Shown piece after piece: positions 9,442-15,502 of a stretch of DNA of 64,000 bases (positions within the stretch are counted from its first letter, which is position 1; every line of letters starts with the position of its first letter). The DNA lies in contig NZ_CALFBQ010000009.1 in assembly GCF_937951745.1 (NCBI RefSeq), positions 1 to 64,000 of the forward strand, in the 5' to 3' direction. The notes under the pieces were generated by a model. It worked only from the letters and a program-made list of their open reading frames with translations. It ran no database searches and was not told where the DNA came from. A program made the position numbers and the translations under genes. The DNA is from an uncultured Chloroflexus sp. Lineage in GTDB: Bacteria; Chloroflexota; Chloroflexia; Chloroflexales; Chloroflexaceae.

Positions 9442-10392
9442 TCAAGCACGTCTGCGCTCAGCAAACGCTGCCAGCGCATACCATAGTGCGACTGCTGCCA
9501 GCCGGGCTGTGCGGTCATCAATATCGTACTGCGGATTCAGTTCGCTAAACTCGATCAGGCGCGTGCGCGGATCAGCACCGGCCACCATTGCCAGCGCCAC
9601 CAGCTCATCGCCGCTCATGCCAAGCGGGTTAGGCGCGCTCACGCCGGGCGCTTCGGCAGATTGTACCACATCTAGATCGAAGCCCCAGCCTATACTGGCC
9701 GCATCGCTGGCAGCTAACAATGCCCGCACCGTCGCTGCAACACCAGCGCGACGCGCTTCGCTCAGCTCGACGATCGTTGCGCCGCGTTCACGCAAATAGG
9801 CGGTATACACTGGCGAATTGGCATGGAGTTGTGCGCCAATCACCCAATACCGGTGCGGGTCAATCAAGCCAGATTCGATCAATTGGCGATAAGGAGTGCC
9901 GCTATTGGCCGGTTGATCGGCACGCACATCATAGTGAGCATCAATATTGATCGCTAGAGCAGGCACTGGCGCAGCGACAGCCAACGCTGCCATATCGGGG
10001 AGACTGATGTCATTACCGCCGCCGAGACTCATCAACAATTTGCCGTCAGCGATAATCTGGGCAGCCACGTCACGGTGAAGAGCATGAATCGCCTCAAGCT
10101 CGCCCTCAACCGGCACATCACCGAGATCGCAGATGGGCAGATCGACCATCCCGGCCACACCGAGGCGGTAGAAGCAACGCCGGATTGCAGTTGGCCCTTG
10201 GGCAGCGCCAGCCCGGCCCCGATTGCGTTGCACGCCAAGGTCTTGCGGGCAACCGAGGATCACCACCGCAGCAGAATCATAACCGGCGACGCCGGGGATC
10301 ACCACCTCACCCAGCCGCCGGTCGTTGGGGTCATCACGGCGATAAAACAGCTCACTTGCGGGCACAATGAGCTGTTGGAAGAGCGGATTCAC
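9442..10392 (-). CDS. Ureohydrolase (arginase/agmatinase/formimidoylglutamase) family protein
   Basis: A 316-aa arginase-fold enzyme of the family that hydrolyses guanidino or formimino groups with a binuclear Mn site. Metal motifs: GGGNDI where most members have GGDHS or GGGHE, INIDAHYDVR (the canonical DAHxD), and GFDLDVVQS (SxDxDxxDP-like). The first His ligand is thus replaced by Asn, which should alter or weaken one metal site. It starts with GTG overlapping the stop of the 81-aa gene by four bases (GTGA), so the two are translationally coupled. The substrate may be formimidoylglutamate, a guanidino compound, or something new; no hut or arginine genes lie nearby. Confidence 0.75.
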   Translation of the reverse strand: MNPLFQQLIVPASELFYRRDDPNDRRLGEVVIPGVAGYDSAAVVILGCPQDLGVQRNRGRAGAAQGPTAIRRCFYRLGVAGMVDLPICDLGDVPVEGELEAIHALHRDVAAQIIADGKLLMSLGGGNDISLPDMAALAVAAPVPALAINIDAHYDVRADQPANSGTPYRQLIESGLIDPHRYWVIGAQLHANSPVYTAYLRERGATIVELSEARRAGVAATVRALLAASDAASIGWGFDLDVVQSAEAPGVSAPNPLGMSGDELVALAMVAGADPRTRLIEFSELNPQYDIDDRTARLAAVALWYALAAFAERRRA

Positions 10393-10634
10393 TGGCGGAA
10401 GAAATCGATCACTTGGCTGCGTTCTTCTTCGCTCGGCATCAACTCAATGAACGTGATCCGATGCCACGGAAAGATCACTGCTTGCACACCCGCAGCCAGA
10501 TAAGGCACCGGCTTGCCATCACGCTTGCGCATATTGGTGACTTTGATAAAGAGATCGCCGGGCTGTGGTTCCTGATCTATATCGGCCAGCAGCGGATCCT
10601 CGCCAGTGAGATGCAGAATGACGGTTTTTGGCAT
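10389..10634 (-). CDS. Conserved-looking 81-aa hypothetical protein
   Basis: Not recognised. A small soluble acidic protein with alternating hydrophobic segments (TVILHLTGED, GDLFIKVTNMR, AVIFPWHRITFIEL) suggestive of a small beta-barrel, ending in a charged helix. It sits 23 bases after the FHA gene and its stop overlaps the GTG start of the ureohydrolase. Tight packing between two real genes and codon use like its neighbours make it a credible gene. It may be a small adaptor of the signalling cluster or a partner of the hydrolase. Confidence 0.7.
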   Translation of the reverse strand: MPKTVILHLTGEDPLLADIDQEPQPGDLFIKVTNMRKRDGKPVPYLAAGVQAVIFPWHRITFIELMPSEEERSQVIDFFRQ

Positions 10635-10657: not shown

Positions 10658-11179
10658 TTACGAACTCACTTCAAAACGCACCAGCAACATCCCAAACTGC
10701 ACCTCATCACCGTGCTGCAACGGCATTGGCTGGCCGGGAGGCAGGCGCTGGCGGTTGAGAAACGTCCCATTTGAGCTACCGAGATCTTCGAGGGCGTAAT
10801 GATTGTGTGAACACACGATCCGGGCATGGCGGCGCGAGACACCGGCATCATACCCGCCATCGAGACTGAAATCAACATCGGGGAAAAAGCCGCGCTGCTG
10901 GTCTTTGCGCCCGATCAGCAATTCCGGCGCCGCTGGCAACTCAATCCGCCGGCCCGAACTCAGTACGACCAAGGCAATGGCCGGCCCAGTCGCCGGGTTC
11001 GCCGGCGCGGGCAGAACGGTTGGCTCATCTTCAATCTGGGGTGCTGCTTCAGCAGCCGCTCGATTAAGCGAAGCGGTGGTTTGGCGTTGCGGTTTGGTAC
11101 TGATCAGGCTGGCACCGCAGACGGTGCAGAAAATCGTGCCATCGAGTTGTTGGGCTTGACAGTAGCTACAAATAATCAT
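10658..11179 (-). CDS. Zinc-ribbon and FHA-domain protein
   Basis: 173 residues. The N-terminus is a short zinc ribbon (CSYCQ ... CTVCG, two CxxC pairs), followed by a flexible linker with DEPTVLP, a likely phosphorylatable Thr of the GarA type, and a C-terminal FHA domain (about residues 80-173). FHA hallmarks are LLIGRK, VSRRHARI and SSNGTFLN, which include the Arg, Ser and Asn that hold phosphothreonine. It is a phosphothreonine reader, downstream of a kinase, a phosphatase and a VWA protein in the same run. The start is set at the Cys-rich segment, with GGAG about 13 bases upstream; a longer open frame has no family support. Confidence 0.9.
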   Translation of the reverse strand: MIICSYCQAQQLDGTIFCTVCGASLISTKPQRQTTASLNRAAAEAAPQIEDEPTVLPAPANPATGPAIALVVLSSGRRIELPAAPELLIGRKDQQRGFFPDVDFSLDGGYDAGVSRRHARIVCSHNHYALEDLGSSNGTFLNRQRLPPGQPMPLQHGDEVQFGMLLVRFEVSS

Positions 11180-11198
11180 TGTGGTCGTTTGCTCCGGC

Positions 11199-12455
11199 CT
11201 ATGATTGCTCTTCGCGCCCAATAAGGCCACGAGTGCCATACTTGATCCGTTTACGCCCTTCAGCGCTCGCCTGCCCGGAACGGAGCAAGCGGGTCGCCTC
11301 TTCCTGCACGGTGCGGGCCAATTCAACTTGCCCCGCTTCAAAGAGGCGCGTGCCGGCCATTTGCAAGCGCCGGGTTGCCTCTTCTAGTTTGCCTTCTTCG
11401 GCGGCTTGCCATGCACTGGCCTGCAACCGGTAAGCCACCAACCGTTCCAACCAGTGCTTGACTGTAGGGTCAACATCATCACCAACCTCATCAGGATCGC
11501 GAAACGCGACCGGCAGCGCCTGCTCGTGGCTCTGGGTCGCGCTATCGCTGCCCGGTGTGCGGTAACGCAGATTGAGGCGCAGCAAGGTATGGCGGCCAAC
11601 TGGCCACGGTGGCACGACCATTTCCAGCAACAACGCTTGGGTGTCGCTCTCAGGCCAATCGCCGAGCGCCGCCGTCCAGACAAAATCAGCCTCTTCAATC
11701 ACCGGCAGCGGCCCGATAAACGGGCGCACCCGATCGAGCGAGCGCACCAACGCCTGCGGTGGCAAGGCCAGCCGCACATGCACATCTTGCGCAAACAGAT
11801 TCTGCATGCGCTCAACTTCAGCGGTGAAGATTTTCGTAATTTCGCTAGCAGAAGTGATGTAGTGGGTACGACTATTCTCGCGGGCGGCGATCGTCTCAAG
11901 CAGGTCTTCATTCCATTCGCTGCCGATGCCCAGTGCCGTAATTCCGATCCCGCGCGCCTGCGCGCGGCGGGCAATCTCGACACAGCGACCTTCATCGCCA
12001 TAAGTACGGCCATCGGTCAGCAACAACAACCGATGGACCGCGCGCGGCATCATGGCCCGTTGCAATTCTTGCACCCCCAGCGCCAACCCGGTTGCCATCT
12101 CGGTACCGCCGGTAGCCTCAATCGCGCTGATGTGGCGCTTCATTTCCTGCCGCGCCCGCGCAAGTTGAGCGGGAATCACTACCTCGGCGCGATCGTTAAA
12201 TGTTACCAGCGCAAAGCTTTCGTTATCGCCAAGCAGGTCGAGGATCTGCATCGCCGCCTGCTTGACCTGCTGCAACCGTTCGCCACGCATCGAGGAGCTA
12301 CGATCAATCACCAAACAGAGGTTGAGCGGCAAGCGCGGCATCTTGGTCGCACCACCTTGCGCCGACAATTCGATCAGCGCATAGAGCAACTGCGACTCGG
12401 CGATCGCCGGCAATACACTACGGCTTGGCGTGATGCGCACGTCAACCTTGCTCAT
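11199..12455 (-). CDS. VWA-domain protein (MIDAS intact)
   Basis: 418 residues. A von Willebrand A domain occupies about residues 40-220 with an intact metal-ion-dependent adhesion site: VIDRSSSMRG (DxSxS), the Thr in EATGGTEMA, and LLTDGRTYGDE. A beta-rich region follows, then a helical C-terminal tail (YRLQASAWQAAEEGKLEEATRRLQ). There is no signal peptide, so it acts in the cytosol as a binding scaffold. Its ATG overlaps the stop of the PP2C gene by four bases, indicating coupled translation. VWA-PP2C-kinase triads are known from TerY-P systems; this set looks like a variant with an added FHA reader. Confidence 0.92.
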   Translation of the reverse strand: MSKVDVRITPSRSVLPAIAESQLLYALIELSAQGGATKMPRLPLNLCLVIDRSSSMRGERLQQVKQAAMQILDLLGDNESFALVTFNDRAEVVIPAQLARARQEMKRHISAIEATGGTEMATGLALGVQELQRAMMPRAVHRLLLLTDGRTYGDEGRCVEIARRAQARGIGITALGIGSEWNEDLLETIAARENSRTHYITSASEITKIFTAEVERMQNLFAQDVHVRLALPPQALVRSLDRVRPFIGPLPVIEEADFVWTAALGDWPESDTQALLLEMVVPPWPVGRHTLLRLNLRYRTPGSDSATQSHEQALPVAFRDPDEVGDDVDPTVKHWLERLVAYRLQASAWQAAEEGKLEEATRRLQMAGTRLFEAGQVELARTVQEEATRLLRSGQASAEGRKRIKYGTRGLIGREEQS

Positions 12456-13408
12456 CGCTGGCCCTCATCGAGCGGCAACGACACCACGACTGCTGAGATA
12501 TTGTCATCGCCGCCGGCCAAGTTGGCCAGCGCGATCAACTCGCGGCAGACATCGTGCGGCCATGGACTATGCTGCAACGCCTGTTCAATCGCCTTTTCTT
12601 CAACCATGCTCCACAGGCCATCACTACATAAAACGATATGAGAGCAATTATTGAGCTGGTGATAGACGAAATCGACCGCTACCTGCGGCTGCTGCCCCAC
12701 AGTCCGATAGAGCTGGTTACGCAACGGATGCTCACGCGCCTCGTCAGGATCGAGCTGACCAAGCGCAATCAACCGTCCCACCGTTGAATGGTCGGTCGTG
12801 AGTTGGCGCAACCCGCCCGGTTCGCAGACGTAGCACCGCGAATCACCGACGTGCGCAACGTAGAGACCGTGACCAATCACCAACGCCGCTGTGCAAGTCG
12901 TCCCCATATCGGAACCGAGCGCCTGAGATTCGCGCCAAATCGCGGCATTCGCCTCTTGTACCGACTCGATCATCAGCGGTTGCAACGCCTCGAGCAAGCC
13001 ATCTTCGATCACCGGTAAGACGAGGCGTTCCAACACATTGGTCAACACCGTTTGCACCGCCAACCGGCTCGCCACTTCGCCGCCCTGATGGCCGCCCATG
13101 CCATCAGCTACGACAAACAAACCCACCGGTACATCAGCGCCTTCACGCGGCAGGGTCATAATCATTGCTAACACGCAATCTTGATTCGTTTCCCGCACCC
13201 GGCCAATATCGCGTAGCGCGGCAGCGGCAAAGCCTTGCGCCGAGCGATGCAGTGTCAACGCCGGTTGGGAATCTTGCCCAATCTGGCGAGTGCCATCTTC
13301 TTCGGGCGGGGTCAGCCCCATCTGTACCAACCGTTCTGACGGTAAGACCACCGGAAACGACGGTTGCGTGGGGGAGTCATCGTGAGCTGGCACAGTTTCG
13401 TCCGGCAT
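12452..13408 (-). CDS. PP2C-type protein Ser/Thr phosphatase
   Basis: 318 residues. The PP2C/PPM catalytic domain covers about residues 55-318, with metal-binding motifs RETNQD, VADGMGGHQGGEVAS, HVGDSRCYV, LCSDGLW and AGGDDNIS. The N-terminal 50 residues are a disordered, acidic leader that contains EDGTRQI around Thr40, the same motif found three times in the neighbouring kinase. It would remove phosphates placed by that kinase. The stop overlaps the VWA start, and the gene lies 27 bases after the kinase. No membrane segment is seen. Confidence 0.94.
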   Translation of the reverse strand: MPDETVPAHDDSPTQPSFPVVLPSERLVQMGLTPPEEDGTRQIGQDSQPALTLHRSAQGFAAAALRDIGRVRETNQDCVLAMIMTLPREGADVPVGLFVVADGMGGHQGGEVASRLAVQTVLTNVLERLVLPVIEDGLLEALQPLMIESVQEANAAIWRESQALGSDMGTTCTAALVIGHGLYVAHVGDSRCYVCEPGGLRQLTTDHSTVGRLIALGQLDPDEAREHPLRNQLYRTVGQQPQVAVDFVYHQLNNCSHIVLCSDGLWSMVEEKAIEQALQHSPWPHDVCRELIALANLAGGDDNISAVVVSLPLDEGQR

Positions 13409-13435
13409 AGCGACACCATTCCCTTACCCTGCAAA

Positions 13436-15502
13436 TCACGCTTTGAGCGCATAGAGATGATGATCCATTGAGCCAATATAGACCACGCCATTGACAATCA
13501 TCGGTGATGAGACGATTGGGCCATCGGTGAGGTATTTCCAGATCAATTGGCCGCTGCCGGCATCGAGACAGTAGACTGCCTGATCAACAGCACCAAAATA
13601 GAGCCGGCCACCTTCGGCTCGCGGTGACGAGGTAATCTGGCTGCCAACCTCATACTTCCAGACCAAACGCCCGTTCTTGGTGTCGAGCGCGTACATATTG
13701 CCATCGACACCGCCGACAAACACCCGCGTGCCAACCACGAACGGCGAGGAGTTGATGTAATGGCCGGTGCGGAAGCGCCATGCCGGCCAGCCGCCTTCGG
13801 CATCGAGCGCATAGAGGTTTTGGTCGAGCGAACCGACAAAGACCAACCCATCACTGTAAGCCGGCGACGAACGCACCGGCTGTTGGGTGCGCTGCTTCCA
13901 CTTGACGGCGCCAGTGCGCACATCGAGGCAATAGACATTGCCATCATCACCGCCGATAAAGATTGAAGAACCATTGATACACGCCGACGAGCGGATCGGA
14001 TTCCACGTGCGGTACTTCCAGATCAACGTGCCTCGGAGACCATCGATCGCATACACATGTTGATCATCTGAACCGACAAAGATCACGCGGTCTTCAACGC
14101 GCGGCGACGAACGGATCGGCTTATCGGTGCGGAATGTCCAGCGCGGGTTGCCGCGCCGCATATCGAGCGCATAGAGCGAACCATCTTCCGAACCGATATA
14201 GACCATATCTTGCCAAACGACCGGCGACGAGCTGATGCCGCCTTGAGTGGCATACTTCCAACGAAACTCGCCGCGAGCGGCATCAACCGCATAGATATTG
14301 GTATCGTAGCAGCCGACAAAGACCAAACCGCCGCTAACGAACGGTGATGATCGCACCTCGTCTTCGCACTTAAACCGCCAGACCAGCTCAGTTGTTTGCC
14401 CGCTTTTCCCTTTCCCGACTGCCGGAACAGCAACTACCGGCTTCCCCCCAACCGTCTCGGCCAAGGATGGCACGGTGAGCAACGCCTGCCGGAACTCTTC
14501 GGCGCTCTGCCAGCGGGCCGCCATGTCATATTCGAGCGCACGCATCACCACGGCTTCCATTTCTGGCGAAACCGCGGGGTTAATCTGGCGGATGGGACGT
14601 TCTTGGAAGGTGAAAGGCGTTTCGAGGCGCGGATCAGTATTTGTGAGCAGATGGTGCAACGTCGCGCCGAGCGCATAAATATCGCCGACCGGCTCGGCCA
14701 CGCCACGGTACTGTTCGGGCGGCGAGTAGCCTTCGGTGCCGATCATTGTGCCCTTGCGATCAATGCGGTTGAGGTTGCGAGCAATACCAAAGTCGATGAG
14801 CACAATCTGATCATCGTCGACCACCATCACGTTTGATGGCTTCATATCACGAAAGACGATTGGTTCCGGCTTATGATTGTGCAAGTATGAAAGCACCTCG
14901 CAGATCTGCAATGCCCACCGCGCAACCCGTGCTTCGTCAAGCGGCTTGCCGTTTTCTTCCAACACCGTCTCAAGGTCTTTGCCGGGGATAAATTCGAGGA
15001 CGAGGTAGACTTTGCCGTGCTCTTCAAAGAAGTCGTAGACTTTAGGAATAGCAGGGTGTTGCAGGGTAGCCAACAAACCAGCTTCGCGCTGAAAATTCTT
15101 GAGATTGAGCAAACGTGTTTGTGAGTCGGGCGCGCTCTGCGCCATTTCTTTAATCGCACAATAGCGGACAACATCTTTGAACCGCAAGTCGCGCCCACGG
15201 TAAACGACGCTCATACCGCCAATACCGATTGGCCCCTCGACATAGTAACGCCCTTGGAGAACGGTACCGGCGTTGAGCATGACCGGCGTTACCGGCGCTG
15301 GCTGACCAGCGGGCCGCGCCGCCATCTGGCGCGTGCCATCGTCTGCTTCGCTAATAGGCCGCGCCGCCATCTGGCGCGTGCCATCGTCAGGCGCAGATGA
15401 CGGCGTAGATGGGCTGATCTGGCGCGTGCCATCATCAGCAGCGCCGCCTTCGGGAGGTTGTGCGTTGACAGATTTGGTACCAACCCGCTTGATCAAACCC
15501 AT
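13436..15502 (-). CDS. Cytosolic Ser/Thr protein kinase with PQQ-type beta-propeller
   Basis: 688 residues. Residues 1-70 are disordered with three repeats of DGTRQ(I/M) (Thr26, Thr42, Thr57). The kinase domain (about 85-345) has a Gly-rich loop (GIGGMSVVYRG), Lys in CAIKEM, the catalytic loop VFRDMKPSNVM (Phe in place of the HRD His), DFGIARN and a GTEGYSPPEQY activation segment. From about 375 onwards eight repeats of pattern W-K-Y...SSP...VYIGS-D...YALD build a PQQ-type propeller, here probably a protein- or ligand-binding module. No transmembrane helix is present, unlike PknB. It heads the 10-kb run and has its own promoter. Propeller ligand is unknown. Confidence 0.94.
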   Translation of the reverse strand: MGLIKRVGTKSVNAQPPEGGAADDGTRQISPSTPSSAPDDGTRQMAARPISEADDGTRQMAARPAGQPAPVTPVMLNAGTVLQGRYYVEGPIGIGGMSVVYRGRDLRFKDVVRYCAIKEMAQSAPDSQTRLLNLKNFQREAGLLATLQHPAIPKVYDFFEEHGKVYLVLEFIPGKDLETVLEENGKPLDEARVARWALQICEVLSYLHNHKPEPIVFRDMKPSNVMVVDDDQIVLIDFGIARNLNRIDRKGTMIGTEGYSPPEQYRGVAEPVGDIYALGATLHHLLTNTDPRLETPFTFQERPIRQINPAVSPEMEAVVMRALEYDMAARWQSAEEFRQALLTVPSLAETVGGKPVVAVPAVGKGKSGQTTELVWRFKCEDEVRSSPFVSGGLVFVGCYDTNIYAVDAARGEFRWKYATQGGISSSPVVWQDMVYIGSEDGSLYALDMRRGNPRWTFRTDKPIRSSPRVEDRVIFVGSDDQHVYAIDGLRGTLIWKYRTWNPIRSSACINGSSIFIGGDDGNVYCLDVRTGAVKWKQRTQQPVRSSPAYSDGLVFVGSLDQNLYALDAEGGWPAWRFRTGHYINSSPFVVGTRVFVGGVDGNMYALDTKNGRLVWKYEVGSQITSSPRAEGGRLYFGAVDQAVYCLDAGSGQLIWKYLTDGPIVSSPMIVNGVVYIGSMDHHLYALKA

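What the first reader, a model, noticed from the sequence alone, without database searches (positions are those of the whole stretch)
10658..15502. Repeated DGTRQ(I/M) motif shared by kinase and phosphatase next to an FHA reader: a likely phosphothreonine switch
The kinase tail has three copies (Thr26, Thr42, Thr57) and the PP2C leader one (Thr40) of the acidic-flanked motif DGTRQI or DGTRQM. The two proteins are otherwise unrelated, so the motif is shared by function. T-R-Q-I places Ile at +3 from Thr, a known FHA preference (pThr-x-x-I/L). An FHA protein with intact pThr-binding residues is two genes downstream, with a VWA scaffold between. I infer that the kinase phosphorylates these sites, the FHA protein docks, and the phosphatase, tethered by its own copy, resets the switch.
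Basis: partly seen in the sequence, partly recalled or inferred. Interest (0 to 1): 0.82.

Follow-up and report, generated by a model that had tools for sequence, protein, structure and literature searches.

The report
Shared phosphothreonine tag in kinase cluster
Four neighbouring signalling proteins of a Chloroflexus bacterium carry the same short threonine tag; it is conserved across relatives and resembles a tag that an archaeal phosphorylation switch is known to use, so it is probably a real but unproven molecular switch.

Summary
DGTRQ[IM] occurs three times in the kinase (N-terminal leader, not tail) and once in the PP2C leader, and nowhere else in the 4.2 Mb genome. In relatives the exact letters drift but the class T-[RKQH]-x-hydrophobic persists in 47 of 50 kinase leaders; Thr outnumbers Ser 80:1 and the hydrophobic residue is enriched at +3 only. 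The PP2C copy is weaker (29 of 50).

The VWA protein, called a scaffold, ends in KRIKYGTRGL; Thr408 and Leu411 are kept in 49 of 50 cluster-linked VWA proteins sampled across Chloroflexota, down to 25% identity, and Thr408 is never Ser. The FHA linker has a Thr-x-x-Leu too.

Sequence and fold searches identify the VWA and zinc-ribbon-FHA pair as bacterial homologues of archaeal ArnB and ArnA. There, phosphorylation of ArnB's C-terminal bundle, including two ETTRRI repeats, makes the ArnA FHA domain bind. That supports the phosphothreonine-switch idea but makes the VWA protein the likely main ligand. Phosphorylation and binding are unproven here, and Thr408 may be partly structural: AlphaFold puts it in a confident helix. 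A fifth conserved gene, 81 aa, follows the FHA gene. New variant of a known kind.

The parts
13436..15502 (-). Ser/Thr kinase (residues ~76-340) with C-terminal PQQ/BamB-like beta-propeller and a ~70-residue N-terminal leader
   Evidence: Pfam Pkinase and PQQ_2 hits; FRD[ML]KPSN and DFG present in 49 of 50 orthologues
15416..15433 (-). DGTRQI, Thr26 of the kinase leader
15368..15385 (-). DGTRQM, Thr42 of the kinase leader
   Evidence: inside a 32-nt repeat identical to the next copy
15323..15340 (-). DGTRQM, Thr57 of the kinase leader
15467..15484 (-). VGTKSV, Thr9 of the kinase: degenerate N-terminal copy matching the MxLIKKxGT[KT] start of orthologues
12452..13408 (-). PP2C phosphatase with ~65-residue leader
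   Evidence: Pfam PP2C; DGMGGH in 49 of 50 orthologues
13280..13297 (-). DGTRQI, Thr40 of the PP2C leader
   Evidence: class present in 29 of 50 orthologues
11199..12455 (-). VWA protein of ArnB architecture (VWA inserted in a beta-sandwich, C-terminal helical bundle)
   Evidence: AlphaFold2 mean pLDDT 92.6; PDB 4FX5 Z 37.8, ArnB 8S05_A Z 32.4 over model 2-412
11223..11240 (-). YGTRGL, Thr408 at the end of the VWA protein: most conserved copy of the motif
   Evidence: T408 94%, R409 92%, L411 94% of 53 VWA proteins; T408 and L411 in 49 of 50 cluster-linked ones
10658..11179 (-). zinc-ribbon plus FHA protein, ArnA-like
   Evidence: Pfam FHA and Zn ribbon; best PDB hits ArnA 5A8I and 8S05_C over ribbon and FHA; R91, S115, H118, N137 invariant in 41 sequences
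11066..11083 (-). QTTASL, Thr35 in the disordered ribbon-FHA linker
   Evidence: linker residues 29-50 have pLDDT below 50; [TS]Txx[LIMF] in 43 of 50 orthologues
10389..10634 (-). conserved 81-aa protein of unknown function, fifth gene of the cluster
   Evidence: 60 of 61 Chloroflexales loci within 400 nt of the FHA gene, same strand; no Pfam or NCBIfam match

Best explanation
The four genes encode a phosphothreonine switch built on a bacterial ArnA/ArnB-like pair. Inferred mechanism: the kinase phosphorylates threonines in the sequence T-[RK]-x-[ILM] on the C-terminal helix of the VWA protein (Thr408) and on its own leader. The zinc-ribbon-FHA protein then changes from weak, ribbon-mediated contact with the VWA protein to tight FHA-pThr binding, with the +3 hydrophobic residue helping recognition. 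The PP2C reverses this. Kinase leader copies, and the PP2C copies where present, bring writer and eraser to the same reader or compete with the VWA tail for it. The linker threonine of the FHA protein may bind its own FHA domain and turn it off, as the ETTS threonines of GarA do. Shown here: motif, conservation, gene linkage, folds and intact pThr-binding residues. Inferred: phosphorylation, binding, order of events and what is regulated downstream.
For: Motif class in 47 of 50 kinase leaders, 50 of 50 VWA tails, 43 of 50 FHA linkers and 29 of 50 PP2C leaders. T versus S in [DE]x[TS][RK]x[ILMV] of 52 kinase leaders is 80:1 against a background of 483:321; ILMV at +3 after T[RK] is 69% against 16% background, 6% at +2 and 18% at +4. 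In all four proteins of Chloroflexales, T is followed by ILMV at +3 far more than S is (T: 0.36, 0.33, 0.39, 0.55; S: 0.13, 0.07, 0.17, 0.00), with 0 of 2000 shuffles reaching the observed counts. Gene order is kept in nearly every locus. The VWA protein has the ArnB fold and the FHA protein is ArnA-like. In Sulfolobus, ArnC phosphorylates threonines of ArnB's C-terminal bundle and this makes the ArnA FHA domain bind, and PP2A reverses it (PMC12852372, PMC6509490, PMC7472852); ArnB contains ETTRRISESIETTRRI. Eight other kinases of this genome whose leaders could be read lack the motif. Cyanobacterial and Deinococcus VWA proteins next to FHA and PP2C genes carry the class in their tails (KTRQI, KTQTL); five VWA proteins not next to an FHA gene do not.
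Against: No phosphorylation or binding data exist for these proteins. AlphaFold2 places VWA residues 398-409 in a confident helix (block pLDDT 93), so part of the Thr408/Arg409/Leu411 conservation may be packing. The PP2C motif is absent in many lineages. FHA linkers outside Chloroflexales show no significant +3 signal (182 of 2000 shuffles reach it). A +3 hydrophobic residue may be a kinase preference rather than an FHA one. Counts are not independent, because the sequences are related. The FHA +3 rule itself is called controversial in PMC4037201.
Confidence: 0.62

Rival explanations
1. The motif is the kinase's preferred substrate sequence (autophosphorylation and substrate sites that act by charge or by activating the kinase), not an FHA ligand; the neighbouring FHA protein recognises something else.
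For: The motif is densest on the kinase itself (up to 5 copies counted per readable leader). Thr preference and a +3 hydrophobic residue would fit a Hanks-type kinase as well as an FHA domain (general knowledge of bacterial kinases, not tested here).
Against: Cluster-linked VWA proteins keep the motif while VWA proteins away from FHA genes lose or change it, and the homologous ArnA FHA domain binds phosphorylated ArnB (PMC12852372). Small samples.
Confidence: 0.2
2. The VWA tail motif is a structural helix end and the kinase leader copies are low-complexity tandem repeats; there is no common function.
For: AlphaFold2 helix 398-409 with high pLDDT; two kinase copies are a fresh 32-nt DNA duplication.
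Against: Thr is practically never replaced by Ser in either place; the +3 pattern recurs in four unrelated proteins; orthologous leaders differ in nearly all but the motif.
Confidence: 0.12
3. The FHA protein works mainly by intramolecular pThr capture, GarA-like, through its linker TTxSL site; the other copies are minor.
For: Linker [TS]Txx[LIMF] in 43 of 50 orthologues, disordered linker, FHA domain similar to GarA/OdhI.
Against: The VWA copy is more conserved than the linker copy; GarA lacks the zinc ribbon and VWA partner.
Confidence: 0.06

Closest known systems
ArnA/ArnB module with ArnC kinase and PP2A, Sulfolobus acidocaldarius
   Same: Zinc-ribbon plus FHA reader; VWA target with beta-sandwich and C-terminal helical bundle; threonine motifs in that bundle (ArnB has ETTRRI twice); kinase and phosphatase act on the pair.
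   Different: Kinase architecture differs (ArnC has OB and TPR-like parts, here a PQQ propeller); phosphatase is PP2C here, PP2A there; the kinase, PP2C and FHA linker also carry the motif here; bacterial, no archaellum.
GarA/OdhI of actinobacteria
   Different: No zinc ribbon, no VWA partner; targets are metabolic enzymes; below the NCBIfam OdhI cut-off here (47.9 against 200 bits).
PpkA-PppA-Fha threonine phosphorylation pathway of type VI secretion
   Same: Kinase, phosphatase and FHA reader; pThr of a target recruits Fha (TssL Thr14 in Agrobacterium, PMC3953482).
   Different: Controls secretion; the FHA protein here is far below the TagH cut-off (45.9 against 120 bits).
PknB-FhaA of Mycobacterium tuberculosis
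   Same: A kinase's own phosphorylated linker recruits an FHA protein (cited in PMC12077195), as proposed for the leader copies.
   Different: Transmembrane kinase, different FHA architecture, no VWA protein.

Membership tests
ArnA/ArnB-type pair | VWA domain inserted in a beta-sandwich with C-terminal helical bundle | tested here: met
   Foldseek and VIA-align: ArnB 8S05_A Z 32.4, 370 residues, model 2-412
ArnA/ArnB-type pair | Partner with N-terminal zinc ribbon and C-terminal FHA domain with pThr-binding residues | tested here: met
   Best PDB profile hit is ArnA over ribbon and FHA; R91, S115, N137 invariant
ArnA/ArnB-type pair | Conserved threonine motifs in the C-terminal bundle of the VWA protein | tested here: met
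   Thr408 in 49 of 50 cluster-linked VWA proteins
ArnA/ArnB-type pair | Phosphorylation-dependent complex of the two proteins | not testable with these tools
   needs purified proteins
archaellum regulatory network (full system) | ArnC-type kinase and PP2A phosphatase | tested here: not met
   Kinase plus PQQ propeller, and PP2C
GarA/OdhI | Match to the OdhI/GarA family model | tested here: not met
   47.9 bits against cut-off 200
[quoted passage not shown]
   Thr34-Thr35 conserved in Chloroflexales but no significant +3 signal farther out
T6SS threonine phosphorylation pathway | TagH/Fha family FHA protein | tested here: not met
   45.9 bits against cut-off 120.25
TerY-P triad (VWA, PP2C, kinase of ter operons) | Association with ter genes | not tested
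   considered from memory only; no ter-gene search done

The most novel reading that the evidence does not exclude
One FHA reader is controlled by a single pThr code written on all its partners at once: its main target (VWA tail), its writer (kinase leader, one to many copies), its eraser (PP2C leader) and itself (linker).
Probability: 0.25. Interest if true: 0.8.

Novelty: new variant of a known kind. Interest (0 to 1): 0.62.

Why it matters
It suggests that the archaeal ArnA/ArnB phospho-switch has bacterial homologues in Chloroflexota, and by gene order also in cyanobacteria and Deinococcus, with a short, testable phosphothreonine code. The 2026 ArnAB paper (PMC12852372) states that ArnB-type proteins elsewhere are mostly not in such phosphorylation-dependent processes; these clusters argue otherwise. 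A handful of peptide-binding assays would settle it.

Tried and rejected
Membership in the GarA/OdhI or T6SS TagH families: model scores far below cut-offs. Anti-phage system (PADLOC): only generic kinase and PP2C matches, none for VWA or FHA. Chance or composition as the source of the motif: rejected by shuffles and by the offset and Thr/Ser controls. Phylum-wide FHA linker signal: not significant, so not claimed outside Chloroflexales. Aligning the VWA tail to ArnB by sequence alone failed. Pfam ArnB_C was not among the matches of the VWA proteins. Paper searches for a described VWA-FHA-PP2C-kinase cluster in Chloroflexi found none; that library holds only open-access papers.
Full report
OBSERVATION. 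The window lies in a Chloroflexus genome: the closest PP2C orthologue found is 94% identical and comes from Chloroflexus islandicus. The minus strand carries kinase, PP2C, VWA and FHA genes in that order. It occurs nowhere else in the 4.2 Mb genome, and a reversed control pattern has no hit. The kinase copies are in the N-terminal leader, not a tail. Copies 2 and 3 share an identical 32-nt unit and are a recent duplication.

CONSERVATION. The four genes are kept in order in nearly all orthologous loci fetched from Chloroflexales and their order-level relatives such as Herpetosiphon and Roseiflexus. Kinase leaders differ in length and sequence but mostly keep the class [DE]-x-T-[RK]-x-[ILMV]: DDSTRQI, EEGTRTI, DATRGI, GDTRRGL, DATKNI. 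Among 50 distinct loci a Thr motif (T[RKQH]x-hydrophobic; for the FHA linker [TS]Txx[LIMF]) is in 47 kinase leaders, 50 VWA tails, 43 FHA linkers and 29 PP2C leaders. In 15 loci under 75% PP2C identity, kinase leaders have 30 T[RK]x[ILMV] sites against 2.1 by shuffling. Two internal controls are informative. First, in [DE]x[TS][RK]x[ILMV] Thr outnumbers Ser 80 to 1, against 483 to 321 overall. Second, the hydrophobic residue is enriched at +3 only (69% against 16% background; 6% at +2, 18% at +4). The same +3 signal after Thr, and not after Ser, appears separately in all four proteins. In the VWA tail alone +4 is also high, because GL[MIV] follows. These counts come from related sequences and are not independent events.

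THE VWA TAIL. Its last residues include KRIKYGTRGL. In an alignment of 53 VWA proteins from the phylum, down to 25% identity, Thr408, Arg409 and Leu411 are 94%, 92% and 94% conserved, the best-kept positions of the C-terminal domain together with four others, A348, L364, L379 and K402. Of the 50 grouped as cluster members, 49 have Thr408 and Leu411; three from a paralogous VWA group have lost Leu411, and two of them Thr408 as well. Thr408 is never Ser. Outside the phylum, VWA proteins next to FHA and PP2C (and usually kinase) genes on cyanobacterial plasmids and in Deinococcus wulumuqiensis end in runs such as LRKTRQISAGTRKTVKMGAKGKTVKMG and KTISLGTAKTLKIGAKTQTL, while five VWA proteins without an FHA neighbour have none. 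For one of the six cluster-type tails, L210, the record ends before an FHA gene could be seen.

WHAT IT IS. A profile of the FHA proteins finds Sulfolobus ArnA (5A8I, 8S05_C) as the best solved relative, matching both the zinc ribbon and the FHA domain. The AlphaFold2 model of the VWA protein (pLDDT 92.6) matches Catenulispora VWA 4FX5 (Z 37.8) and ArnB 8S05_A (Z 32.4) almost from end to end, including the C-terminal helical bundle. [quoted passage not shown]). The ArnB phosphopeptide region reads ETTRRISESIETTRRI, so Thr344 and Thr354 sit in E-T-T-R-R-I, which fits [DE]-x-T-R-x-I. The 2026 paper assigns the fast-phosphorylated residue of the second repeat to Thr353, the neighbour, so the register is not shown to be exactly the same. 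If the last residues align without a gap, Thr408 falls on ArnB Thr375, one of three threonines phosphorylated within five minutes; only the range ends are known, so this is a lead.

MECHANISM. Shown here: motif, conservation, gene linkage, fold, and intact FHA, kinase and PP2C signature residues. Inferred: the kinase phosphorylates Thr408 and its own leader, the FHA domain docks, and PP2C resets. The kinase-leader step has a precedent in PknB-FhaA and the FHA-linker step in GarA. The PP2C step is weakest: strict copies occur in 29 of 50 loci and Chloroploca has no leader.

CAVEATS. AlphaFold2 puts residues 398-409 in a confident helix, so Thr408 could be structural; in ArnB, Thr371-Thr375 are also buried and are thought to become exposed by stepwise phosphorylation, so this does not exclude the switch. 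A +3 hydrophobic residue could reflect kinase preference instead of FHA preference. FHA linkers outside Chloroflexales show no significant signal. No binding or phosphorylation data exist.

CONTEXT. The glycerol-kinase-like gene and the other flanking genes are linked almost only within Chloroflexus, so they do not point to an output. An 81-aa gene directly after the FHA gene is the fifth conserved member; it also exists in some genomes without a VWA match. A second cluster with PP2C, kinase, VWA and FHA genes on contig 18 of this genome has a VWA tail RYATRRL and a PP2C with TTQRL.

VERDICT. Observation confirmed; interpretation partly supported and redirected toward the VWA protein: a bacterial ArnA/ArnB-like phosphothreonine switch with the motif spread over writer, eraser, target and reader. 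New variant of a known kind.

Noticed in passing
10389-10634 (-): 81-aa protein directly after the FHA gene, conserved next to the cluster in 60 of 61 Chloroflexales loci and in most Anaerolineae-type clusters, 95-100% identical across Chloroflexus; no Pfam, NCBIfam or PDB relative. Possible output of the switch.
   Followed up: partly
L133 (own genome contig 18, 68000-84000): Second cluster PP2C-PP2C-kinase-VWA-FHA in the same genome; VWA tail ELRYATRRLTQRL, PP2C with PRTTQRL.
   Followed up: partly
L134 (own genome contig 18, 110000-120000) and relatives L163, L166, L169: VWA paralogue whose tail has changed to KTIKFxxRKTVRL[ST]D, like the cyanobacterial cluster VWA tails.
   Followed up: partly
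L207, L209, L211, L212: Cyanobacterial plasmids carry VWA-FHA-PP2C clusters (kinase annotated in L207, L211 and L212), mostly near extra VWA genes and a serine hydrolase gene.
   Followed up: partly
L065-L068: Herpetosiphon kinase leaders hold long arrays of DATRGI/DSTRSI-like repeats in the last 140 residues before the kinase domain; copy number differs strongly between genera.
   Followed up: no
PP2C leaders of L035-L080: A second conserved leader motif ETPT[EA]P[LM]S / TTAPLDPEQL, also Thr-x-x-Leu, reaching distant clusters (IETAPLSEEQL); the window's copy has lost the +3 residue (SPTQPS).
   Followed up: partly
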